This document shows, piece after piece, positions 4,692 to 64,000 of a DNA stretch of 64,000 nucleotides. The stretch comes from Pseudobdellovibrionaceae bacterium (lineage in GTDB: Bacteria; Bdellovibrionota; Bdellovibrionia; Bdellovibrionales; Bdellovibrionaceae), in the NCBI GenBank assembly GCA_019637915.1, contig JAHBUV010000001.1:1706565-1770564 (forward strand), in the 5' to 3' direction. Position numbers and translations under genes: made by a program. The notes under the pieces are model-generated. The model searched no databases. It was not told the origin of the DNA and worked only from the letters and a program-made list of their open reading frames with translations. Position 1 is the stretch's first letter, and each line of letters opens with the position of its first letter.

Positions 4692-5324
4692 TTAAAGAAC
4701 TTGCGGTTCCTCCCGGTAAAGAGGAACCCGCAAACGCCCCACGAACGCCCAAAATTCCACCGGGCTCTCCTGGATGATCCTTTCGCTGAAAAGATAGGCC
4801 ACCATTTTTCGGGCCTTCAACGAATCTTTTTCCCCCAGTTGGGCGAAATGATCATAGACGATCTCGTGCATCCAGAGCCCCGCCCTTTCCCGGGCCGGCA
4901 TATCTTTCCATAAGTCCTGGGAAAATATGAATTTCTTCCCGTCGGTTCGCGAATTTCTTCTCGTGGCGGCCTGCTGCAGCCGGCATTTCTTCGACAAAGG
5001 TTCGATGAGATGGAAAGAATCCTGGCTGGAAACAAGTTGGATGTTTTCCTTGTACTCGATCTCTCGCTGGAGCCTCTCGAAACGATCACGGTAATTTTTT
5101 GCCAGCGCGGGGGCGATCTTTTGAAGAGCAGACAACGTTTCATCGATGATTTGGTTTTCGTCAGCGGAGCCGATTTTCCTCCATGGCCCGGACGACTCGT
5201 AAAAATCCAGCAACTCGATCCGCCGGCGCCCGTTCTCCTCGCAGACGACGAGGTTTCCGCCGTTGCCAACCCGGTTGCCGTTGGCAAAAGCCGCCGCCAT
5301 CAAGACAAAGAATATTTTGATCAC
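4692..5324 (-). CDS. Exported GNGG-family protein with HE...H motif
   Basis: No named function. 210 aa with a short export signal (residues 1 to about 15), then the GNGGN motif at 20-24 followed by VVCEENGRRRIELLDFYE, a signature I associate with a family common in Bdellovibrio relatives. Residues 150-160 contain MHEIVYDH, a His-Glu/His cluster that could bind metal though the spacing is not classic HExxH. GTG start with ggag six bases upstream. It is the last gene of regulator-lipoprotein-GNGG, directly abutting the lipoprotein stop. It resembles in architecture the protein at 61090-62100, which also follows a TIGR02147 regulator. Confidence 0.75.
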   Translation of the reverse strand: MIKIFFVLMAAAFANGNRVGNGGNLVVCEENGRRRIELLDFYESSGPWRKIGSADENQIIDETLSALQKIAPALAKNYRDRFERLQREIEYKENIQLVSSQDSFHLIEPLSKKCRLQQAATRRNSRTDGKKFIFSQDLWKDMPARERAGLWMHEIVYDHFAQLGEKDSLKARKMVAYLFSERIIQESPVEFWAFVGRLRVPLYREEPQVL

Positions 5325-5990
5325 TCACAACTCCAGAGGTAAGCGGTACTTCAGTTTTTCCCCGTCAATTGTCACCAGCGTGAGGTGATAAAAAACCCCA
5401 TTCTGTTTTTGGGGGACATTGATCAAAATCCAACGCCGCAAAACGCCGTCGGCCGGGATATCGATCTGCCCCGCGTAGAGATGGTCTTCCGGAACGCTCC
5501 GAGATGTTTCCGCCTTCAAGATCGAGCGGTTGATCTCGCGAACCTTTTGATATGTCATTCCCGCCGCCGTCACGCCCAAGCCCGCATCGGACAAACCCCG
5601 GTTGCCGTTCCCGGCCCCCGCCACGGCGGCGACCACGCCCACCGCGGTCACCGCGCCTGTCATGATTTCAGAGTTGTGATTGGCCACCTTCTGTTTGTTT
5701 CTCAGGGATTCCGACCAGGCGATCAGGTCCTTCCCGACGAGCACGTTGTAGACATTCTTGTCTTGATCGGGAAATTCCAATTCAACCGATTCGATCCGCA
5801 GGATTTTCGTTGCCTTGTTCTCCAGGGTGAAATCCAAAAAAACGTTCGCGGGGCTCGAGTATTCATCAACCTTTTGCGCGCTGACCCGCAGAGATGTTTT
5901 ATTGGCCGCGTCCGGCGTGGCCATTTTACCGGGGTGGATGCTCGCGCATCCGGGGAGAAACACACTCAAAAGAAAAAACATCTTTTTCAT
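5325..5990 (-). CDS. Exported lipoprotein, unknown function
   Basis: 221 aa with a lipoprotein signal (KKMFFLLSVFLPGCAS, lipidation Cys near residue 15). The first half resembles a beta-sandwich with LDFTLENKATKILRIESVELEF, and a hydrophobic Ala/Gly segment (GAVTAVGVVAAVAGAGNG) lies near residues 112-129, followed by PVPE-type polar sequence. Its start overlaps the TIGR02147 stop (ATGA) and its stop abuts the GNGG gene, so the three are one transcription unit. No family recognised; probably a periplasm-facing envelope component regulated by the upstream HTH protein. Confidence 0.72.
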   Translation of the reverse strand: MKKMFFLLSVFLPGCASIHPGKMATPDAANKTSLRVSAQKVDEYSSPANVFLDFTLENKATKILRIESVELEFPDQDKNVYNVLVGKDLIAWSESLRNKQKVANHNSEIMTGAVTAVGVVAAVAGAGNGNRGLSDAGLGVTAAGMTYQKVREINRSILKAETSRSVPEDHLYAGQIDIPADGVLRRWILINVPQKQNGVFYHLTLVTIDGEKLKYRLPLEL

Positions 5991-6751
5991 CGCGGCGTCC
6001 TTTCATCCAATGCTTCGGTGACGGGAAACAATTGACAGGAAAACGTGTAGACGGCTTGGCAGTTCCCTTTTTCGAGCAAAGAAACCATTTCTTCCTGGAA
6101 AGACTCGATGGCTTTTTTCGCGAGGGGAATGTTCTTGGGATCGATCGCCATGGTCATCGCCGAGAAATCGCGCGCCTCCAAAGGGGTCTCCGTGATTTTT
6201 TCCTCCGCCAAAGCGAGGATTTGGCGGTGGTACTTGCGGATCGCTTCGGAAGGGACGCCGGAGGCGATCCGCAAAGGATCCGTTTTTTGCGAAAGGCAAG
6301 GGCCTGAATCCAGAATGTCCAGCCGCTGAAGCCGCAGCAAAGCCTCTTTCGCCTCGTAGAATTTGATGTTCAAGCGTTTCGCCACCCAAGCCGGATCATT
6401 TTTCGCCCCTTTTAATTTCGCCAGACTCAGAATGGCGAAATGATGCCAATCCGAGATCAAACGGAATTGATCCTCACGCAACTGGAAGCTCCGCTTTTCT
6501 TCCCCGGCTTGGCGGTCGCGGGCGACGGTCCCCTCGAACAAGCGCCTTCTTTCGAAAGGCGAAAAATTCAACCGACGGGCGATCTGATCAAAGACCTTCG
6601 GTGTGACGTTTCTTTTTCCGGAAATGATCTGGGACAACTGCGCGGGACTCAATTGCAGGCTTTGGGCGAAAGCCCGTAAGGAATACGCCTGATTGCTCTT
6701 TTGCCGGCTTTTCAGTTCGTCACGGAGTCTTTCCCGCAGGTCTGTCTTCAT
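5987..6751 (-). CDS. TIGR02147-family HTH transcriptional regulator
   Basis: 254 aa. The N-terminal helix-turn-helix (about residues 24-62: SLRAFAQSLQLSPAQLSQII then GKRNVT) resembles XRE-type DNA binding, and the C-terminal two thirds has the family's WHHFAILSLAKL, WVAKRLN and PLEARDFSAMTMAI segments (TIGR02147/DUF4423, largely confined to Bdellovibrio and Fibrobacter relatives). The frame stays open to 6823, but the HTH placement favours ATG 6751. It heads an operon with a lipoprotein and an exported GNGG protein. Upstream lie three alternating GAAACA/TGTTTC half-sites, a plausible autoregulatory operator. Confidence 0.88.
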   Translation of the reverse strand: MKTDLRERLRDELKSRQKSNQAYSLRAFAQSLQLSPAQLSQIISGKRNVTPKVFDQIARRLNFSPFERRRLFEGTVARDRQAGEEKRSFQLREDQFRLISDWHHFAILSLAKLKGAKNDPAWVAKRLNIKFYEAKEALLRLQRLDILDSGPCLSQKTDPLRIASGVPSEAIRKYHRQILALAEEKITETPLEARDFSAMTMAIDPKNIPLAKKAIESFQEEMVSLLEKGNCQAVYTFSCQLFPVTEALDERTPR

Positions 6752-6796
6752 GCCCAGGTTTTCACCCTGAAAATGGCAAAGAACAAGCCCACCATT

Positions 6797-6822
6797 GAAA
6801 CAGTGTTTCAGAATTCGAAACA
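6797..6822. promoter_or_regulatory. Candidate operator: three GAAACA half-sites
   Basis: GAAACA (6797-6802), TGTTTC (6804-6809) and GAAACA (6817-6822) alternate in orientation. The first two form a perfect dyad with a one-base centre and the second pair a dyad with a seven-base centre. The cluster lies 46-71 bases upstream of the regulator start at 6751, suited to control by that regulator. This is a pattern seen by eye; no binding data. Confidence 0.5.
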
Positions 6823-55351: not shown

Positions 55352-56113
55352 TTACTTCTTCCGGGTGAGTTCCACGATCTCCTCGAGCTTTTCCACGGGC
55401 TGCACTCCGCTCAGCGCAATGCCGTTGAGAATCATCGTCGGGGTTCCATTGAAGCCGAAGGCTTGGAATTCCGCCATGTCCTCTGCGACGGTCTTTTTCA
55501 CCGCGGCGGATTTGACGTCGGCGGCGAGCTTGCCGGGGTGAGCGCCAACTTGAGCGGCCGCTTTTTTCAGAAACGCTTCATCTTTCAGTTGTCTTTGATG
55601 GGCGAAGACATGCTCGTAGAACTTGAGCGCTTTGACTTTGTCCTGACGGCGGATCGCCTCGAAGTACAGCGCGGCCGGAAAGGCCATCGGGTGGAAATCG
55701 AGGGGCATGTTCTTGTAATAGACCTGGATGTCATTTTTGTGCTTTTGTTTGAACTCCTTCAATGACTCGCTCGCCATTTTGCAGGCGGGGCATTGAAAAT
55801 CCACGTACTCCACCAGCACGATGGGGGCCTTGTCGTCGCCGATCAACCTCCGCTCCTCTGAAAGCTTCGGTTGTTTGGGATTTTTCAAATCCCTCTCCTG
55901 CCCTTTTTTCATTTCAGAAGCGTGTTGTTCATATTGCGCCTGCTGGGCCTTCTGGGCCGCGCGATTGACGGATTCGATGAACCGGACGGGATTCTCCTCA
56001 ATCGCCTCGAACACGATGTCCGGATTCTTTTTGATCGCCTCGCGGATCTGGTTTTCGCTGGAAACGCAACCGGAGACGGCGAAACCACCCAATGCCAGGA
56101 TTAACTTTTTCAT
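55352..56113 (-). CDS. DsbA-like thiol-disulfide lipoprotein
   Basis: 253 aa. Lipoprotein signal (LALGGFAVSGC, Cys16), helical spacer with a KAQQAQYEQHASEMKK stretch, then a thioredoxin fold with Cys108-Pro-Ala-Cys111 (VDFQCPACKMAS) and cis-Pro GTPTMILNG. This fits the BdbD/DsbA or Com1-like lipoprotein group. The ATG overlaps the M56 peptidase stop, so it is part of the BlaI operon. Confidence 0.88.
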   Translation of the reverse strand: MKKLILALGGFAVSGCVSSENQIREAIKKNPDIVFEAIEENPVRFIESVNRAAQKAQQAQYEQHASEMKKGQERDLKNPKQPKLSEERRLIGDDKAPIVLVEYVDFQCPACKMASESLKEFKQKHKNDIQVYYKNMPLDFHPMAFPAALYFEAIRRQDKVKALKFYEHVFAHQRQLKDEAFLKKAAAQVGAHPGKLAADVKSAAVKKTVAEDMAEFQAFGFNGTPTMILNGIALSGVQPVEKLEEIVELTRKK

Positions 56114-57228
56114 CTCATCCCCTTGTTTGTCGGAATTGATTGTTTGTCGTTCTCACACCTGTTCGAATCCGGCTTTTGATTCAGCCAGGACTCCATCCAC
56201 TTTTCATGATTCCACTGGGAGCACATGAGCCCTCGAGACATGTTTCCATCGCGGCCGCCGATGGTCACACGGGCCTGCGCGGCCGAAAACCCGATTGAAA
56301 GAGAAACCGTCAGAACCAAAATCCGCCGGAATAGACTCCTCGAAACTTTCGATTTTTCAAGGGAGTTCAGGGATTCCATCCTCTCCTTGATTTCCTTGAA
56401 GCCACGACTGGCCGAAACGGATACCAGGCTGGTGGATGAGCCCGGGGCCAAAGAGACCACGTCCAAAAGCGATCGCTGAAGATCGAGCGGGCGAATGCCG
56501 GCCGCCAGCACGGATTCTTCATCCGCGGCTTTTTCCACCGTCATGTGATGCCGATGGTGAAAGAGGGCCATCAAGGGATGAAAAAACAGCGCTCTCCGGC
56601 AGAGCCTTCCCAACAACAACCAAAGAACATCGCCATCGCGCGCATGAACGAGTTCATGGCAAAGAACCGCCCGCAGGCTGTCGGCTGAAAGCTCGTTCAG
56701 CAACTTCTCTGGCATCACCACTTTGCAATTCCGAAAACCGAGGACGAAAGGACTGATTTGTTCGCCCGTCGTGTAAAACGGCATCTCCTTTGCCAGGCCC
56801 AAGCGTCTTCGGCACATCTCAAATATTTTTTGCGGCTCCGGGCTCAAGACAGGCTTGAGTCGGCGGACCTGCCGAAATGAAAGAAAAATCCTGAGGCCGT
56901 CTTGGCTCAGCAAAAATCCGAAGCCACACGCCCATATCGCCGCGATGAGGCGGGTGATGGGCAGGGAAGATCCGGCTTTCACGAAACGATCAAAACAGCC
57001 GGACGCCAGTTCCGGATCCGCGAACGCAACGAGCAAAAAACCCGCTGAAAAAACGGTCATGATCAAAACCGTCTGACTGTTCAAAAACCATTTCATCTGC
57101 AGATGGCTGGTTCTCCCCAAGAGCCAAGCCGAGACGATCCACCATAAAATCAGAGATACCGTGGCGGCCAATGTCCCGACCAGCAAACCTCGCCAGACAT
57201 AATCAAGAAACGGGAGCTCAGCCAACAT
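56110..57228 (-). CDS. BlaR1-like M56 zinc peptidase without sensor domain
   Basis: 372 aa membrane metallopeptidase of family M56. Three to four helices in the N-terminal half, then HELVHARDGD with His191-Glu192-x-x-His195 and the third-ligand region EKAADEESV. After that, a helix near 305-325 and a short tail; no penicillin-binding sensor domain. Paralogues cleave BlaI-type repressors; BlaI is directly upstream, overlapping its start by 11 bases. Its own cue is therefore unknown. Confidence 0.9.
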   Translation of the reverse strand: MLAELPFLDYVWRGLLVGTLAATVSLILWWIVSAWLLGRTSHLQMKWFLNSQTVLIMTVFSAGFLLVAFADPELASGCFDRFVKAGSSLPITRLIAAIWACGFGFLLSQDGLRIFLSFRQVRRLKPVLSPEPQKIFEMCRRRLGLAKEMPFYTTGEQISPFVLGFRNCKVVMPEKLLNELSADSLRAVLCHELVHARDGDVLWLLLGRLCRRALFFHPLMALFHHRHHMTVEKAADEESVLAAGIRPLDLQRSLLDVVSLAPGSSTSLVSVSASRGFKEIKERMESLNSLEKSKVSRSLFRRILVLTVSLSIGFSAAQARVTIGGRDGNMSRGLMCSQWNHEKWMESWLNQKPDSNRCENDKQSIPTNKGMR

Positions 57229-57616
57229 CTTCGCCCCCTTTTTTGTGCTCCATCTTCGCCATCATGTCTTTCAGCTGCGAAAGCTCTTCCGCCGTCAATT
57301 TCGAAGAGGACACAAAATAAGCGAAGAGAGGGCTGACTGAACCACCCAGGGTTTTTTCAATGAAGTTCGAGACCTTGTCGCTGAGCACTTCATTCGTTTC
57401 AAGCTTCGTGCGGTATTGAAAAATCCCGTTTTCACGGGCGCGGCTCAAGAATCCCTTTTTACGGAGCCTCTCCATGACCGTTAAAACGGTCGTGCGCGCC
57501 AGCTTCTTTTCCTTTTCAAAATGGACCGCCACGTCCCTCACGGAGAGAGGCTCATGGCCATCGACATAGCGAAGGATTTCCATTTCCTGCTCACCCAAAC
57601 TCGGCACTTTCTTCAT
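57218..57616 (-). CDS. BlaI/MecI-type repressor
   Basis: 132 aa. Winged-helix text LGEQEMEILRYVDGHEPLSV then VTTVLTVMERL-like ARTTVLTVMERLRKKGFLSR, followed by a dimerisation helix FIEKTLGGSVSPLFAYFV. ATG 57616 is chosen from domain placement; upstream in-frame codons reach 57667. Two palindromic operators sit directly ahead of its start. It controls itself, the M56 peptidase and the DsbA-like lipoprotein. Confidence 0.9.
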   Translation of the reverse strand: MKKVPSLGEQEMEILRYVDGHEPLSVRDVAVHFEKEKKLARTTVLTVMERLRKKGFLSRARENGIFQYRTKLETNEVLSDKVSNFIEKTLGGSVSPLFAYFVSSSKLTAEELSQLKDMMAKMEHKKGGEDVG

Positions 57617-57627
57617 CAGCCACCTCA

Positions 57628-57667
57628 GACTACAAATGTAGTCTAAATTGACTACGTCTGTAGTCAA
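57628..57667 (-). promoter_or_regulatory. Two BlaI-type operators overlapping the promoter
   Basis: Dyads gactacaaatgtagtc (57628-57643, perfect except central four bases) and gactacgtctgtagtc (57650-57665) match the BlaI/MecI operator pattern TACANNTGTA; centres are 22 bp apart, two helical turns. On the reverse strand TTGACT (57662-57667) and TAGACT (57640-57645), 16 apart, form a promoter that both operators overlap. Confidence 0.85.
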
Positions 57668-57711
57668 TGGGGTCTGGAGTCTAGTTTTTCGGGATGCAGG
57701 AAAATTGCGGT

Positions 57712-57870
57712 CTATTCATCAGTTCCTGCAACAATTTCCACTTTGATGCGATCGGGGTCTTCGAAATAGACCGCGTAATTTCCACCCGCACGTGGATGCG
57801 AGCTTGTTTCTTAGATGGTGGAGTAGACGACGAAGTCATCCAGCCGACTTTGCAGCTACTGACGGTCCAG
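57712..57870 (-). pseudogene. Decayed VOC/glyoxalase-family gene remnant
   Basis: In one reverse frame the sequence reads HPRAGGNYAVYFEDPDRIKV and then EIVAGTDE before a stop at 57712-57714. This is a typical C-terminal strand of VOC (glyoxalase/bleomycin-resistance) proteins. Upstream the same frame carries two in-frame stops, so this is a fragment of a broken gene. No start is present. Confidence 0.6.
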
Positions 57871-57940
57871 TAATGACTGCAACCTCCTTGGTACCTATAA
57901 GTAGTTGATAATAATAATGACTTCGTGCAGTATTTGATTT

Positions 57941-58102
57941 TGCTACAAAAAATGATTCAAAATTTGCAGCAACCTATTTGTAATTATAAGTGCTTATATT
58001 TATTAGGTATTATCATTATGGACCAGTTTTCTACAAAAAGTACTCAAAAACTTGTAGAATGATGACAGGTTTTCTACAAAATATGCAGCAAATTTTGCAG
58101 AT
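57941..58102. promoter_or_regulatory. Three matched 31-bp dyads upstream of the Fic gene
   Basis: Each is eight bases, fifteen bases, eight bases: TGCTACAA/TTGCAGCA (57941-57971), TTCTACAA/TTGTAGAA (58029-58059, perfect) and TTCTACAA/TTGCAGAT (58072-58102). Centres are 88 and 43 bases apart; the third ends 17 bases before the Fic ATG. This suggests a regulator that binds repeatedly in the leader, perhaps the Fic protein itself through its C-terminal HTH. Confidence 0.6.
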
Positions 58103-58119
58103 AAAGTTGCGGGTATAAA

Positions 58120-59364
58120 ATGAGCAAAGACGACTTTGATTTCTTAAATTCGGACATCTGGCTCAACTACACCCAGCAAAGCTATCGATCTCCTGAAGAG
58201 ATCAGGTATCGACTTCAGGAGAAAAATAAAAAGCCGAAAGATTGGGAATCAGTGGCGAGAAAGATCGTCGCTATTCGAAAAACCAATGCGATCACACTGT
58301 TCATCGATTCGATTGCACCGAGGTTTTGGTTTTATCCTGCTGACAGCATTCTACGGAAAATTAATGAAATCGACCGAATCGGAACTGCTCTATACGAAAG
58401 GATTCGGCGTGCGACATTTGAACAAGAGTTTCTATTAAATTCGAGAATTGAAGAGGCGATCACTTCTGCAATTTACGAAGGTGCTCACAGTACGAGAGCA
58501 CAAGCAAAGCAGCTAATCGCGTCCAAGGAAACACCCAAGAACAAAGATGAGTGGATGCTCATCAATAACCTTCTGGCCATGAATTGGGTGAAGGATCACA
58601 ATCAAGAAACCCTTTCCAAAGACACGATCCTTACCCTTCATGAAATTGTAACTCGGAACACTCTCGAAGGTGATGACGTCAACTACTCAGGTCGGTTTCG
58701 CGACGACACGGTGAGTGTCGGTCCGCATGAAGGAATTCAATACGATTTGATTGAGACCGCTATCAATCAAATGATCAAACTCATTACTCAGAATAGACGT
58801 TACATACATCCAATTATTAGAGGCGTACTCATCCACTACTTCATTGCATATATTCATCCGTTCTTCGACGGAAACGGGCGAACTGCCAGAGCACTCTTCT
58901 ATTTCAAATCAATGAAACACAATTTGAAGTATGTTGAGTTACTTTCCGTCTCTGCCTACTTGAAACAGCATGGGGAGCAATATGAAAAGGCATTTCAAAA
59001 AGTCGTAGAGAACGAATACGACGTGACCTACTTCATCGATTTTTGCCTAGACTCGATGCTCTCAGCATTAAAACAGGTAGAGAAGAAGATTACTTATTTA
59101 ATTCGAATGGCTGACCTAAAGCAGCGGTTCAAGCTTAACGACAATCAGCTTGGATTACTTCAACGGATGGCTCTCAATAAGTTCCGATTCGTACATATCG
59201 AAGAGTATGCAGCACAGATCAAAATGTCTCGTGAGACTGCCCGGCAAGATTTAAAGGAACTCCAAGATCAAGGTCTGTTGATCGAATTCAAGTCTGGCAA
59301 GAAGCTCTGCTACAAGGTCAACGCAGAGAAGCTAAGAGAGCTTTATAAAGATCCAGGTGTTTAG
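58120..59364 (+). CDS. Fic/DOC-family protein with N-terminal inhibition motif and C-terminal HTH
   Basis: 414 aa, predicted AMP-transferase. Fic motif HPFFDGNGRTAR starts at His246, with Asp250 and the GNGR anion hole. The inhibition helix motif S-x-x-x-E-G is at Ser116-Glu120-Gly121 (ITSAIYEGAH), so it is a class II, self-inhibited form. The last 75 or so residues have a DeoR-like winged helix, YAAQIKMSRETARQDLKELQ. AT-rich relative to genes before 57.7 kb, so likely acquired. Alone, without an adjacent antitoxin gene. Confidence 0.88.
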   Translation: MSKDDFDFLNSDIWLNYTQQSYRSPEEIRYRLQEKNKKPKDWESVARKIVAIRKTNAITLFIDSIAPRFWFYPADSILRKINEIDRIGTALYERIRRATFEQEFLLNSRIEEAITSAIYEGAHSTRAQAKQLIASKETPKNKDEWMLINNLLAMNWVKDHNQETLSKDTILTLHEIVTRNTLEGDDVNYSGRFRDDTVSVGPHEGIQYDLIETAINQMIKLITQNRRYIHPIIRGVLIHYFIAYIHPFFDGNGRTARALFYFKSMKHNLKYVELLSVSAYLKQHGEQYEKAFQKVVENEYDVTYFIDFCLDSMLSALKQVEKKITYLIRMADLKQRFKLNDNQLGLLQRMALNKFRFVHIEEYAAQIKMSRETARQDLKELQDQGLLIEFKSGKKLCYKVNAEKLRELYKDPGV

Positions 59365-59691
59365 CACTTGCTTCACGGGTTCAGCCCGGTCTGCTCAGAG
59401 GGAGAAGGTCAGACTCTACCCTTTAAGGGGCGTTGTGTCCACCAAACCGGGGCAACTTCACTAGAGATACTTATTCCCAAACCAAAATAACCCGCAGCAT
59501 TAAGTATTTGATAACTTTTACTAAAACTACTTAGAGCATTTAAATAAAACCTGAAATATCTGTCTTTCAAATGGACCATTTCATTTACTTTTGTAAACAC
59601 AAAAGACGACCTAGACCTTGTTTGAAAAATTTAAACTCCGTAGGATCTGGTTGTGCGCACATAAACAAAAAAATTAAGGAGAATTTTTAAA
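59365..59691. other. Gene-poor stretch with GC-richer patch and hairpin repeat
   Basis: No convincing gene. 59375-59465 is more GC-rich than its surroundings, and 59436-59460 begins TGTCCACCAAACCGG and reads like the end of an IS3-type element, though no transposase follows. CTTTTGT (59588-59594) and ACAAAAG (59599-59605) form a hairpin repeat with a four-base loop, about 90 bases before the next gene. A 63-codon reverse frame at 59409-59600 has no protein-like pattern and is not called. Confidence 0.4.
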
Positions 59692-60282
59692 ATGAAAACC
59701 GCAATTCTGTTTTTTAGTCTTTTAGTAGGCGGCTTCGCCCATGCACAAGTTATCGCAGACACGTTTGAGTGCCGAGCCAAAATAGTTGATCTTAAAACAA
59801 ATGACACCGCAGAAAGTGTCGGCATGGCGGCAGGCCATCGCATAGTGACGCCGATAGATTCCTCAACAGGACAACCATATCCATCAAATATGGAAGTCTC
59901 TAAAGGCGAGGCTAAACTAAGTTTGGCGCTTAACGGAAAAATAAATTCATACAAAGTTGATTTCAATCTTCAGTATGGATTTGCTAAACGTTCTCTTCCA
60001 AATCCCACTGAAGCTCGACAGTATGTTTGCAATCAAGTTACACTTCAAAGTTGTCAGAATGGTGAGATGGGTTCGTGTGCCGCTGCGAGCACAATTTGCG
60101 TAGTAATTCCAGATCCTTTTGATCCTAAATATGGGTGGAGCGAAACAATCTTAATTCAAAAAGTCCCAGTGTTTAATGAAAAACTTTTGCGTCCTCTCGA
60201 TACAATCGTTCCGATTGATCCAAATGACCCTAATGGAGCACGCGTAACTGTCTCTTGCAAATTTCAAGGAACATACCTCTAA
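59692..60282 (+). CDS. Exported hypothetical protein, regulator-associated
   Basis: 196 aa. Signal peptide of about 19 residues (MKTAILFFSLLVGGFAHA), then ADTFECRAKIVDLK and a four-Cys region around QVTLQSCQNGEMGSCAAAS. Probably disulfide-bonded, with DTFECRAK resembling the RDSFECTIRSG text of the 61090 protein. ATG has aaggag ten bases upstream. It stands two bases ahead of a TIGR02147 regulator. Confidence 0.72.
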   Translation: MKTAILFFSLLVGGFAHAQVIADTFECRAKIVDLKTNDTAESVGMAAGHRIVTPIDSSTGQPYPSNMEVSKGEAKLSLALNGKINSYKVDFNLQYGFAKRSLPNPTEARQYVCNQVTLQSCQNGEMGSCAAASTICVVIPDPFDPKYGWSETILIQKVPVFNEKLLRPLDTIVPIDPNDPNGARVTVSCKFQGTYL

Positions 60283-60284
60283 CG

Positions 60285-61103
60285 ATGCAATCAGTTAGAC
60301 CTGTTGTTTTTGATTATACTGACCCGTCAGAATTCCTCCGAGACCTTGGCGAGCACAATAGAGAAACTCGCCGAGGTTTCAGTGTTCGTGCCAGATCAAA
60401 AGATATGGTCGGGTGCTCGCCTGCTCTTATTTCACAAGTTTTAAAAGGTCAGAGAAAACTAAAACGTGACCAACTGTTAAATTTCGCAAAAGTCTTTGGG
60501 CTAACAACCACCGAAGTAAACCACATCGACAATCTTCTTAAGTCAGAACAAACGCAAGGTGCGCTTAGTGACTTTTCTATTCCTACAAAGGAAGCAACAG
60601 CAAAAGTTCCTAAAAATCATCTTTTGGCTGATTGGTTGCATCCCTACGTAAAAGACCTTATTGAGCTAAAAGATTTTAAGCTTGATGTGAAATGGATGCT
60701 TCAGCATCTGGGCTTCGCAGCAACTCCACCTAAAATTGAAAAATCAGTTCAATTTCTTCTCAAGGAAGGGTTCTGGAGAAAAACTCCCGAAGGGAAAATT
60801 GTTCCTGAAGAAGCAGCAGTCGTGACGACAAATGAGATTCCAAATGAAAAAATTAAAGCCTTTCATAAGCAGGCATTAAAAATTGCAGCAAAAGGCTTGG
60901 AAGAGTTTCCTGTAAATCGGCGTAAAGCTTCAACCATTCTCGTCGCCGTTAATGAGGACTCAAAAGAAGAACTGAAAGCTCTCATCAATAAATTTCAAAG
61001 TGATTTGGTTTCATTTATGGAAAATCATTCGCAGGACAAGGACGAACTTATGCAAGTGACGATTCACATGACTCCAATCGGAGGACAAGATGTCAAAAAG
61101 TAA
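60285..61103 (+). CDS. TIGR02147-family HTH transcriptional regulator
   Basis: 272 aa from ATG 60285; a 30-base in-frame upstream extension overlaps the previous gene and lacks sense. HTH at about residues 32-72 (GCSPALISQVLKGQRKLKRD), then WLHPYVKDLIELKDFKLD, FHKQALKIAAKGLEEFPVN and TILVAVNEDSKEELKALINK, as in TIGR02147. AT-rich codon use differs from the similar regulator at 5987-6751. It overlaps the following GNGG gene by 14 bases. Confidence 0.86.
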   Translation: MQSVRPVVFDYTDPSEFLRDLGEHNRETRRGFSVRARSKDMVGCSPALISQVLKGQRKLKRDQLLNFAKVFGLTTTEVNHIDNLLKSEQTQGALSDFSIPTKEATAKVPKNHLLADWLHPYVKDLIELKDFKLDVKWMLQHLGFAATPPKIEKSVQFLLKEGFWRKTPEGKIVPEEAAVVTTNEIPNEKIKAFHKQALKIAAKGLEEFPVNRRKASTILVAVNEDSKEELKALINKFQSDLVSFMENHSQDKDELMQVTIHMTPIGGQDVKK

Positions 61104-62100
61104 AATAATTTTATTTCTATATTTAATGTGTCCTGCATTTTCTTTTGCGGGAACAGTGGTTGGAAATGGTGGGGAGCCTATTCTACATTATTTAGAGGCT
61201 TCACGTTTCGCTCTTATTGAAACACTCAGAGATATTCATAATGATCCAAAAAAGAATGCTGAGTTTTGCTCTAAGGAGTCACAACTCAATGCCGATCAGA
61301 AAAATTTCTGCCGTGAGTATTTATTGGAAATTTTAGATCAAGTCATCACGCTGAACCTTGAACCGAAAAAAGTTCCCTTTGTTCTGAGAGAAGACCCTTT
61401 GCTTGTGGTTGGGCCAGATGGAAAACCGATGCCAGTTTCTGCAAGAACTGAACTCGGCGACCAAGGGCCTATTGAGTTTCATCTTGATTCTATTAAGTTG
61501 ATGGCTCCTAAAGACCTTTTGCAATTGGTAGCACACGAATTTCAACATAAAATCACTTATAAAAACAGCAGTCCGACAGACAATGATCCTATTGGGCCGT
61601 TTCAATATGGACGATTTTTGATTGATTCTGTAGCATCTGCTATCGTGAAAGTGGCTATTGAAACTGGAAGGATTGGCACGCAGCTTGTTCTTCGGGATAG
61701 TTTTGAATGCACCATCCGCTCGGGTTCATCGCAATTTGGAATGAGGGCCTCAACGCAAAGATGGTTTTTTGATTCTTCTCTTACAAGCTACAAAACAAGT
61801 CTTAGCGAACTGCCGACAGACCCATTTATTTTTGTTTCAGAGACCATCGATTCAAAAATTGTTTTTCAGCTCAACATTACTGATAAGAATCACTGCCAAA
61901 ATCTGAATGATGCCAGCTTACGACAATCTCGTTTGGCCTTGTGGAGAGTATTCAATAATCCTCAAACACCATCGCAATTGATTTCTGAACAAAAGCTGCC
62001 TGGAGTGAATCCTCTGTGCGAAAAAGTATCACCGCTTTTCACAGCAGACTTTCAAGCCATTCATTTTGATTGCAAGTATTACGGGACTGAGGCTCACTAA
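61090..62100 (+). CDS. Exported GNGG-family protein with HExxH
   Basis: 336 aa. Signal peptide (about residues 1-20) then TVVGNGGEPILHYLE (GNGG at 25-28). VAHEFQHKITYK holds an HExxH motif at His149-Glu150-x-x-His153, followed by GPFQYGRFLIDSVASAIV; hence a candidate zinc peptidase. The C-terminal half is a separate domain with RDSFECTIRSGSSQF. It overlaps the TIGR02147 gene and has the same regulator-plus-GNGG arrangement as 4692-6751. No catalytic assignment beyond the motif. Confidence 0.75.
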   Translation: MSKSKIILFLYLMCPAFSFAGTVVGNGGEPILHYLEASRFALIETLRDIHNDPKKNAEFCSKESQLNADQKNFCREYLLEILDQVITLNLEPKKVPFVLREDPLLVVGPDGKPMPVSARTELGDQGPIEFHLDSIKLMAPKDLLQLVAHEFQHKITYKNSSPTDNDPIGPFQYGRFLIDSVASAIVKVAIETGRIGTQLVLRDSFECTIRSGSSQFGMRASTQRWFFDSSLTSYKTSLSELPTDPFIFVSETIDSKIVFQLNITDKNHCQNLNDASLRQSRLALWRVFNNPQTPSQLISEQKLPGVNPLCEKVSPLFTADFQAIHFDCKYYGTEAH

Positions 62101-62107
62101 GAATAAG

Positions 62108-62134
62108 GACGCAGCTATTTTATTAAGCTGCGTC
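62108..62134. terminator. Hairpin after the GNGG gene
   Basis: A nine-base stem gacgcagct (62108-62116) with agctgcgtc (62126-62134) and nine-base loop. On the reverse strand it follows the stop of the remnant frame at 62133 and is trailed by T-rich sequence; a terminator for either strand, with little T-tract on the forward side. Confidence 0.5.
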
Positions 62135-62346
62135 ACCCTGCCAATTTCAGCTTCTTAGTTTTTGCCGTATATGCCGTTGGCGTATATCGTGTATCCATCC
62201 ATTCAGGTTCGGGACGTGTTGCTGGAAAATTTAAAATTTCTGTTAAAGCTTCTTCTTGCTCTTTGCTCAATACCGGAATTTTTTTGTAACTCAATCGGAC
62301 GCCACTTTTATTAACTGTTGAGAAGACAGGCGATTTGTAGAATAAT
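62133..62346 (-). pseudogene. Reverse-strand remnant: C-terminal part of an unknown gene
   Basis: The reverse frame ending at 62133 reads LSYKKIPVLSKEQEEALTEI, LNFPATRPEPEWMDTRYT and PTAYTAKTKKLKLAG, with continuous protein-like composition for about 65 codons and no credible start; the promoter of the forward gene at 62353 begins where it fades. I take it as a truncated 3-prime gene end. The family is not recognised. Confidence 0.4.
62318..62346 (+). promoter_or_regulatory. Promoter for 62353 gene, near-leaderless
   Basis: TTGAGA (62318-62323), 17-base spacer and AATAAT (62341-62346). With transcription seven bases after the -10, the start is the A of ATG 62353. No ribosome site precedes it. 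Confidence 0.5.
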
Positions 62347-62352
62347 ATTATT

Positions 62353-62772
62353 ATGCCAAACTTCAGAAAAAATATCTTTTTAGGTCTTATATTTTTACTA
62401 TGCGGAATTAGCTCGGCGTGGGCAAAGCCTTCTCAAAGCGAAATTGCATTTCAAAATAGCTCCATTCATTTTCAAGCTACGAAAACAAAATCTAAGTTTA
62501 CCTTTTCGGATAACTTAGGTCCTCGTAGCCTTGAAATTAAAAAATGTAATCGCAAAGTGGTTGAAGATTTTTGGCAAGGCCTTGTGAAGTCAGTAAACTC
62601 ATTGCAGGGTTCGGGCATCAAGGAAAGACTGCCCTCTTCAAACGCATGGGTTAAATTTGAAGGTGTTAAATTTCAAGTTCTTGATTTTGAACCCGCCATC
62701 CATGTTTTCAATAAAGCACCCAACAATTCTCAAGTTTTATTTTCTGAAAGCAGACGATTATGCAAAAAATAA
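62353..62772 (+). CDS. Exported hypothetical protein
   Basis: 139 aa. Signal peptide MPNFRKNIFLGLIFLLCGIS through AWA, then KPSQSEIAFQNSSIHFQATK. No motif recognised; two Cys in the mature region (IKKCNRKVV and RRLCKK). The next gene overlaps its end by 13 bases, so they are translated together. Confidence 0.7.
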   Translation: MPNFRKNIFLGLIFLLCGISSAWAKPSQSEIAFQNSSIHFQATKTKSKFTFSDNLGPRSLEIKKCNRKVVEDFWQGLVKSVNSLQGSGIKERLPSSNAWVKFEGVKFQVLDFEPAIHVFNKAPNNSQVLFSESRRLCKK

Positions 62773-64000
62773 TCTTTGTTTTCGCAATTGCTTTAACGGC
62801 TTCGTTCGCATCGGCTGATATTGGGAAAAATATTGAGGAGATTAATAAAGCCGTAAAAAATGCAGGGAATCAGCCAGAAAAATGCACAACATGCTACGTG
62901 GCTGCGGCAGGAATTGCATCCGACAACACGGGCTCTCTGATGAGAAGTTGCGTTGAAAACATCTGTTCAAAGAAAGAATTTTCTCTCGCCGAGACACTGA
63001 ACAAAATTTACGATGGTACAACAAAACCCAACACCACTTACGATAATGAAATCCAACCTATCATCAACGCAATGGCGAAGGAAGATGCTAACGATAAAGT
63101 GACCAGAGGAAAGACATATGAGGAATGGTTAAAAAACCCGCCTGACTTAAAAAAACCAGGAGCCATACGAGTTTTTAATATGTTCACCGTTCTCAATAGT
63201 TTCTCTAAATTTCAGTTCAAGGCTGAGAACGGCAAAGCGGTTATTGATGTTTCCAAATCAAGAAGTGCGTTTCCTGACATCTCTGATGAAGAGTTTAATA
63301 AGCGCGTACAAATTGGTGGAAAAGTTCTGAGTGCCCTCATGGATAAGGCAATTACGGAAACAGACCCAGCGAGGGTTCAGCTTGTCTATGGAAGCGGATT
63401 TAAGGCAAGGGTTGATTCGGTTATAGGCTCGTTTACGGATAAGCAGAAACAAATTGAAGCTGACCCAGAATTAAATTTTTTAACGAAGCTTCAATCATTT
63501 AAAGAAATGGCCTCTGGAGAAAAGATAAAACAGCAGTTTGAAAATACTGAACAGATAAATCCGGATGCTATTAGCAACTTGAATCAAGCCAACGCAGTTC
63601 TAAATTTATTCGTGGCTATTTCTAAAGACCCCGATTTCAAGAAGATGCTTGATTCAGCTCCAATTGATATGAAAAAGGCAATTGCTACATTAGGAACGCA
63701 GAAAATCCTGAAGGACCGAGAGCAACAGCAACAAGGGGTCTTAACTGGACAAACAGCATTATCCGCAAAGTGCCGAACGGCTTTTGAAACTGCCCAGCAG
63801 GTCTTACCATCTCAAAAAGATTTGGATTTATTTAAAACAAAAGTTGATGGATTAAAAAACAATTTTTTGGATAAGACAAAATCCTTAATGTGTGAATCCG
63901 CATCCAAGAATTATCAATCTCAGGTATCGTCTTGGTCAGCAAATTTTCCACTTACAAAAGAGCAGTATCTTGCCAACATGAAAGCAAGTTTAAATCGTGG
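62760..64000 (+). CDS. Exported helical protein, partial (runs off window)
   Basis: At least 413 codons from ATG 62760, open to the window end with no stop. Signal peptide MQKIIFVFAIALTASFASA. A Cys-rich N-terminal patch (CTTCYVAAAG with MRSCVENICSKKEFS) precedes a long helical region rich in Lys/Gln (KEMASGEKIKQQFENTEQ, KDREQQQQGVL). No family recognised. It overlaps the previous exported protein by 13 bases. The C-terminus lies beyond the window. Confidence 0.72.
   Translation, partial: MQKIIFVFAIALTASFASADIGKNIEEINKAVKNAGNQPEKCTTCYVAAAGIASDNTGSLMRSCVENICSKKEFSLAETLNKIYDGTTKPNTTYDNEIQPIINAMAKEDANDKVTRGKTYEEWLKNPPDLKKPGAIRVFNMFTVLNSFSKFQFKAENGKAVIDVSKSRSAFPDISDEEFNKRVQIGGKVLSALMDKAITETDPARVQLVYGSGFKARVDSVIGSFTDKQKQIEADPELNFLTKLQSFKEMASGEKIKQQFENTEQINPDAISNLNQANAVLNLFVAISKDPDFKKMLDSAPIDMKKAIATLGTQKILKDREQQQQGVLTGQTALSAKCRTAFETAQQVLPSQKDLDLFKTKVDGLKNNFLDKTKSLMCESASKNYQSQVSSWSANFPLTKEQYLANMKASLNR

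What the first reader, a model, noticed from the sequence alone, without database searches (positions are those of the whole stretch)
4692..6822. Two copies in the window of a regulator-exported-protein module (TIGR02147 plus GNGG)
At 4692-6751 and 59692-62100 a TIGR02147 regulator is coupled to a GNGG protein that carries an HE..H-like motif. Copy one is GC-rich and copy two AT-rich, so they are not a recent duplication. TIGR02147 is rare outside Bdellovibrio-like lineages. The pairing suggests a modular sensor or secreted-protease family of unknown role.
Basis: partly seen in the sequence, partly recalled or inferred. Interest (0 to 1): 0.7.

Follow-up and report, generated by a model that had tools for sequence, protein, structure and literature searches.

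The report
Regulator paired with exported protease-like protein
Predatory-type bacteria of the Bdellovibrio phylum carry up to dozens of copies of a two-gene cassette, a DNA-binding regulator followed by an exported protein that begins with a Gly-Asn-Gly-Gly tag and often has a protease-like active-site helix; this window holds two of them, and the pairing is real and phylum-wide, though its job is unknown.

Summary
The window holds two TIGR02147/DUF4423 regulators (5987-6751 minus; 60285-61103 plus), each in a tight operon with an exported GNGG protein (4692-5324 minus, with a lipoprotein 5325-5990 between; 61090-62100 plus). The genome has 13 such regulators; 6 adjoin a GNGG/GGGG-type exported protein. 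In ten genomes the gene after TIGR02147 is co-directional in 79 of 95 cases and exported in 74; strict GNGG occurs in 33, against at most 5 at any other neighbouring position. Conversely 51 of 53 GNGG-profile genes lie within 1.5 kb of a TIGR02147 gene (about 1 expected). Partners diverge strongly yet share a Gly-rich tag about 4 residues after the predicted signal-peptidase site, and usually a hydrophobic-HE helix. Only 23 of 105 such helices are HExxH; most are HExxY/W/R/G. Copy one is HEIVY, so not a canonical zinc protease; its AlphaFold model resembles zincins only weakly. Copy two is HEFQH. Best reading: a self-contained regulator plus exported (pseudo)zincin cassette, duplicated and diversified in Bdellovibrionota. 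Signal, regulation, enzymatic activity and role in predation are inferred or unknown.

The parts
5987..6751 (-). Regulator 1: TIGR02147/DUF4423 protein (ATG start; longer TTG start to 6823 possible). HigA-like XRE HTH (res. ~3-86), MarR/ArsR-like winged helix (~90-164), C-terminal alpha/beta part.
   Evidence: NCBIfam 113 bits, Pfam DUF4423 160 bits; AlphaFold model pLDDT 90; VIA Z 9.2 to HigA 2icp, Z 8+ to winged-helix regulators
5325..5990 (-). Lipoprotein (GCASIHPG), 221 aa, overlaps regulator 1 by 4 bases
   Evidence: same gene, same place in L152, L166, L178, L107
4692..5324 (-). Exported GNGG protein 1 (210 aa, GTG start), HEIVY at 153-157: pseudo-zincin-like
   Evidence: alignment A6 invariants; AlphaFold pLDDT 86, pTM 0.82; weak zincin matches
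59692..60282 (+). Exported 196-aa protein just upstream of regulator 2, possible first gene of the operon
   Evidence: signal peptide in the sequence, 2-base gap to ATG 60285; no family match
60285..61103 (+). Regulator 2: TIGR02147/DUF4423 protein
   Evidence: 104 bits TIGR02147, 98 bits DUF4423
61090..62100 (+). Exported GNGG protein 2 (336 aa), HEFQH at 149-153; overlaps regulator 2 by 14 bases
   Evidence: the homologues in G005, G010, G021 all directly follow a TIGR02147 gene

Best explanation
Each copy is a self-contained operon: a cytoplasmic one-component regulator (TIGR02147: XRE HTH plus winged helix) translationally coupled to an exported effector that it most likely controls (and probably autoregulates). 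The effector is cut by signal peptidase so that a Gly-rich tag (consensus [AG]xx[ED]VGNGGD) lies at the mature N-terminus, and usually carries a zincin-like HE helix. Some effectors (copy two, HEFQH) are probably active metallopeptidases; many, including copy one (HEIVY), are probably non-canonical or catalytically dead zincin derivatives kept for binding. The cassette has been duplicated, exchanged and diversified across Bdellovibrionota, probably as an arsenal of separately switched envelope or prey-directed proteins. Shown: pairing, orientation, export signal, shared tag, HE helix, phylum-wide spread. Inferred: regulation of the partner, zincin fold, place of action, role in predation.
For: In 10 genomes the gene after TIGR02147 is co-directional 79/95, exported 74/95, strict GNGG 33/95; other neighbouring positions at most 5. 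Loose Gly motif 49/68 at +1 vs 17/255 of other exported neighbours (Fisher 8e-28); hydrophobic-HE 38/68 vs 20/255 (8e-17). Reverse: 51/53 GNGG-profile genes within 1.5 kb of TIGR02147, 32 directly downstream; expected 1.1 and 0.05. 80 named loci: 72 followed by an exported protein, 38 with a 4-base stop/start overlap. Outside the order 18/22. Tag position 3-6 residues after the predicted cleavage site. Regulators cluster by partner type on their tree (14 changes vs 28 shuffled, 0/200) with some swaps. Second-look fold matches of copy one are mostly zincins, though all Z < 4. A copy-two homologue carries a C-terminal outer-membrane barrel-like domain, which fits an envelope location.
Against: No expression, DNA-binding or activity data. 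Seven of 13 regulators in this genome lack an obvious GNGG neighbour. About a quarter of partners lack the HE helix (42 of 147). Foldseek found no PDB match below E 0.19 for copy one. Neighbourhood alone does not prove regulation of the partner.
Confidence: 0.6

Rival explanations
1. ImmR-ImmA / DdrO-IrrE-like switch: the zincin cleaves its XRE regulator.
For: XRE regulator with an adjacent HE(xxH) protein; DdrO appears low among Foldseek hits of the regulator and IrrE-like among viral hits of the partner.
Against: Partners carry signal peptides (74/95; 72/80) while ImmA/IrrE are cytoplasmic (general knowledge); most partners lack HExxH.
Confidence: 0.07
2. Secretion-coupled feedback: the regulator senses the unexported precursor or its Gly-rich tag, so the tag is conserved because the regulator reads it.
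For: The tag is conserved in partners that otherwise differ and is tied to TIGR02147 adjacency.
Against: No binding evidence; the tag could equally be a sorting signal or a structural loop of the domain (it leads into a confident strand in the model).
Confidence: 0.13
3. Toxin-antitoxin or effector-immunity pair, with the regulator acting as antitoxin.
For: HigA-like HTH (TIGR02607 E 6e-4; HigA Z 9.2); many variable copies.
Against: Partner is exported and shows no match to TA or defence families; a cytoplasmic regulator cannot neutralise a periplasmic toxin directly.
Confidence: 0.1
4. The pairing reflects common ancestry and operon inertia only; the regulator controls other genes.
For: Some regulators stand without a partner.
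Against: The adjacency persists across many genera, in co-directional and divergent order, with different partner types.
Confidence: 0.1

Closest known systems
TIGR02147 (Fsuc_second) / Pfam DUF4423 regulators
   Same: Both window regulators are members over the curated cut-offs
   Different: The family entries, as shown by the tools, describe no partner gene; the coupling to exported GNGG proteins was not found in the papers I could search
ImmR-ImmA and DdrO-IrrE (XRE regulator plus COG2856 zincin)
   Same: XRE-type HTH regulator next to an HE-helix protein
   Different: Here the HE protein is exported and mostly lacks HExxH; the regulator has an added winged helix and C-terminal domain
Mini-zincins (selecase; Acel_2062, PF06262 Zincin_1)
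   Same: Weak fold resemblance of copy one (Z 3.8 and 3.6); one partner (L173) matches PF06262 at the cut-off
   Different: Copy one has HEIVY instead of HExxH and a Gly-rich tag after a signal peptide
BlaI-BlaR1 (a pair of this kind lies at 56110-57667)
   Same: Winged-helix regulator beside an M56 metallopeptidase gene
   Different: BlaR1 is an integral membrane sensor; GNGG partners have only a signal peptide

Membership tests
TIGR02147 / DUF4423 regulators | score over the curated cut-off | tested here: met
   113 and 104 bits vs 50; 160 and 98 bits vs 30
Zincin metallopeptidase (copy two, 61090-62100) | HExxH motif | tested here: met
   HEFQH at 149-153
Zincin metallopeptidase (copy two, 61090-62100) | third zinc ligand and proteolytic activity | not testable with these tools
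   no model of copy two was made; activity needs the bench
Zincin metallopeptidase (copy one, 4692-5324) | HExxH motif | tested here: not met
   HEIVY at 153-157, Y nearly invariant in its subfamily
Zincin metallopeptidase (copy one, 4692-5324) | zincin fold | tested here: inconclusive
   best zincin Z 3.8, no Z of 5 or more; Foldseek E 0.19 or worse
ImmR-ImmA / DdrO-IrrE system | cytoplasmic zincin able to reach the regulator | tested here: not met
   signal peptides on both window partners and most homologues
HigBA-type toxin-antitoxin | adjacent RelE-fold HigB toxin | tested here: not met
   adjacent genes are exported proteins without match to HigB models
GNGG partner family (defined here by A6) | signal peptide, GNGG, conserved D, E, D, Q, HE, Y, S, R | tested here: met
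   copy one carries all; copy two shares the tag, HE and export but joins only by iterated profile

The most novel reading that the evidence does not exclude
The Gly-Asn-Gly-Gly tag at the mature N-terminus is a recognition element shared by otherwise dissimilar exported effectors, read by the dedicated TIGR02147 regulator or by a Bdellovibrionota-specific export or sorting route, making these cassettes a plug-in effector system in which the downstream domain can be swapped.
Probability: 0.15. Interest if true: 0.85.

Novelty: new variant of a known kind. Interest (0 to 1): 0.68.

Why it matters
It links one of the largest regulator families of predatory bacteria, until now of unknown target, to a large set of exported proteins mostly without any Pfam family, and gives most copies a predicted partner. 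That makes the role of dozens of orphan genes per genome directly testable in B. bacteriovorus, where one DUF4423 protein, Bd3700, is listed as up-regulated in the prey-exit phase (PMC12546842). The retained HE helix without the second zinc ligand also offers a natural series from HExxH to degenerate zincin-like proteins.

Tried and rejected
Cytoplasmic zincin cleaving the regulator (exported partner). Toxin-antitoxin (no toxin family). Known defence system (PADLOC: no match for the GNGG proteins, lipoprotein or 59692-60282; only weak generic HTH matches for regulator 1). Modules as general AT-rich islands: pair GC minus flank GC averages -0.008 in 71 named loci, so copy two's island is local. 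The profile first grouped nearly all partners when signal peptides were included; I repeated it with the first 45 residues removed, after which copy one, the GxxD type and copy two still merge by iteration but the HELGHH type and the lipoprotein stay apart; such iterated merging can drift, so one common origin is not claimed. No plasmid-borne copy. No paper found for TIGR02147; the single DUF4423 paper is the proteome study. Sequence search of PDB with the partner alignment: nothing. Viral fold library: no significant match.

Full report
What is there. The window belongs to a 3.32-Mb genome (G000) whose near relatives are Bdellovibrionota; loci named in a public genome scan with the same regulator family are nearly all Bdellovibrionales, Bacteriovoracaceae and kin. 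Copy one: regulator 5987-6751 minus, then a lipoprotein 5325-5990 (4-base overlap), then the GNGG protein 4692-5324 with no gap. Copy two: exported protein 59692-60282 plus, regulator 60285-61103, GNGG protein 61090-62100 with a 14-base overlap. Both regulators are members of TIGR02147 and DUF4423 above the curated cut-offs. No curated family describes either GNGG protein, the lipoprotein or 59692-60282.

More than chance. The own genome has 13 TIGR02147 genes. Six adjoin a GNGG-, GIGG- or GGGG-type exported protein with an L..HE motif: the two in the window, L018, L023 (co-directional, overlapping), L019 (divergent) and L020 (convergent). I then fetched neighbourhoods in nine further genomes and called genes with a codon-usage model. 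Of 95 TIGR02147 genes with a next gene, that gene is on the same strand in 79, has a signal-peptide-like start in 74 and strict GNGG in 33; at positions -5 to -1 and +2 to +5 strict GNGG occurs in 0 to 5. Among exported neighbours the loose Gly motif is in 49/68 at +1 against 17/255 elsewhere, and a hydrophobic-x-HE motif in 38/68 against 20/255. My gene caller misses AT-rich genes in G000 (it dropped copy two), so G000 is undercounted. Genes are related by descent, so the Fisher values overstate independence; the effect is nevertheless seen in most of the genomes (G023 is the exception) and outside the order (18 of 22 exported, 12 with the tag).

Reverse test. A profile of 24 copy-one-type partners (A6) was run over 25 genomes and compared with TIGR02147 positions. 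Of 53 hits in ten genomes 51 lie within 1.5 kb of a TIGR02147 gene, 32 directly downstream on the same strand; random placement predicts 1.1 and 0.05. The profile was built from proteins found beside TIGR02147, so it may favour paired subfamilies. The hits of copy two's own sequence in other genomes (G005, G010, G021), found without that bias, each follow a TIGR02147 gene directly.

Conservation of copy one. Regulator, CASxHPG lipoprotein and GNGG protein recur in the same order in Bdellovibrio sp. MAG_58 (L152), Halobacteriovorax sp. ARS37 (L166), Bdellovibrionaceae UBA6776 (L178) and G005 (L107), and the regulator of copy one groups with theirs.

The partner proteins. Over 146 partners the Gly motif sits mostly 3-6 residues after the predicted signal-peptidase site, with consensus [AG]xx[ED]VGNGGDVV.C. 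In the copy-one type, GNGG, D40, E43, D102, Q118, H153, E154, Y157, S168 and R172 are invariant or nearly so. Of 147 partners 105 have the hydrophobic-HE motif; the residue at the place of the second zinc His is Y 36, H 23, G 17, W 11, R 9. One partner matches PF06262 Zincin_1 at its cut-off, one matches matrixin weakly. A copy-two homologue (L245) has HELGH and a C-terminal stretch resembling an outer-membrane barrel, slightly below that family's cut-off.

Structure. AlphaFold gave pLDDT 86 and pTM 0.82 for copy one's GNGG protein and 90 and 0.70 for its regulator. Foldseek finds nothing significant for the GNGG protein; the best, at E 0.19, is selecase, a mini-zincin. In the second look most of the 22 rows are metallopeptidases or parts of them (deuterolysin-type, selecase, Acel_2062, DPC protease, BlaR1, PPEP-1), but all at Z below 4, so the zincin fold is suggested and not shown. 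The regulator is a HigA-like HTH (Z 9.2) followed by a MarR/ArsR-like winged helix (Z about 8); its C-terminal part was barely tested.

Evolution. On the regulator tree the partner types need 14 changes against 28 when shuffled (0 of 200 as low): regulator and partner are largely inherited together, with partner changes in between. TIGR02147 is in 46 of 59 genomes drawn from the phylum, in up to 21 matches there and up to 45 in close relatives; some genes give two matches.

How it probably works. Overlapping genes imply co-translation. A regulator with two DNA-binding-type domains next to an exported protein most simply controls that operon. The signal it reads is unknown. The exported protein acts in the envelope or beyond; prey-directed use is an inference from the lineage, supported only by the report that a DUF4423 protein, Bd3700, is up-regulated at prey exit (PMC12546842).

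Verdict. The pairing is real, general and, in the papers I could search, undescribed. It is not a new kind of regulation in principle, but it is a large uncharacterised cassette family with an unexplained shared N-terminal tag.

Noticed in passing
window 57000-64000 and on to about L251:4000: AT-rich island (GC about 0.40 against about 0.60 around it) with a transposase of the integrase-core type at L251:1049-2113; copy two lies in it, probably acquired horizontally.
   Followed up: partly
window 56110-57667: BlaI-type repressor and M56 (BlaR1) peptidase pair at the island edge, itself a regulator-metallopeptidase pair.
   Followed up: partly
window 58120-59364: SoFic-like Fic protein with a C-terminal HTH directly before the copy-two operon.
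   Followed up: no
L251:113-688: Another HExxH protein (HEMGHKLF) just past the window end, in the same island; not linked to a TIGR02147 gene that I saw.
   Followed up: no
L245:1495-2673: Copy-two homologue with GNGG, HELGH and a C-terminal outer-membrane-barrel-like domain.
   Followed up: partly
L203:5804-7606; L189:5752-6777: Partner proteins in which the tag precedes other domains: Kelch repeats (L203) and DUF4360 (L189), suggesting domain exchange behind the tag.
   Followed up: partly
L019, L020: Regulators ending in a YFEF/DVFEL-type C-terminus stand divergent from or convergent with their GGGG/GGNGG partner, unlike the co-directional rest.
   Followed up: no
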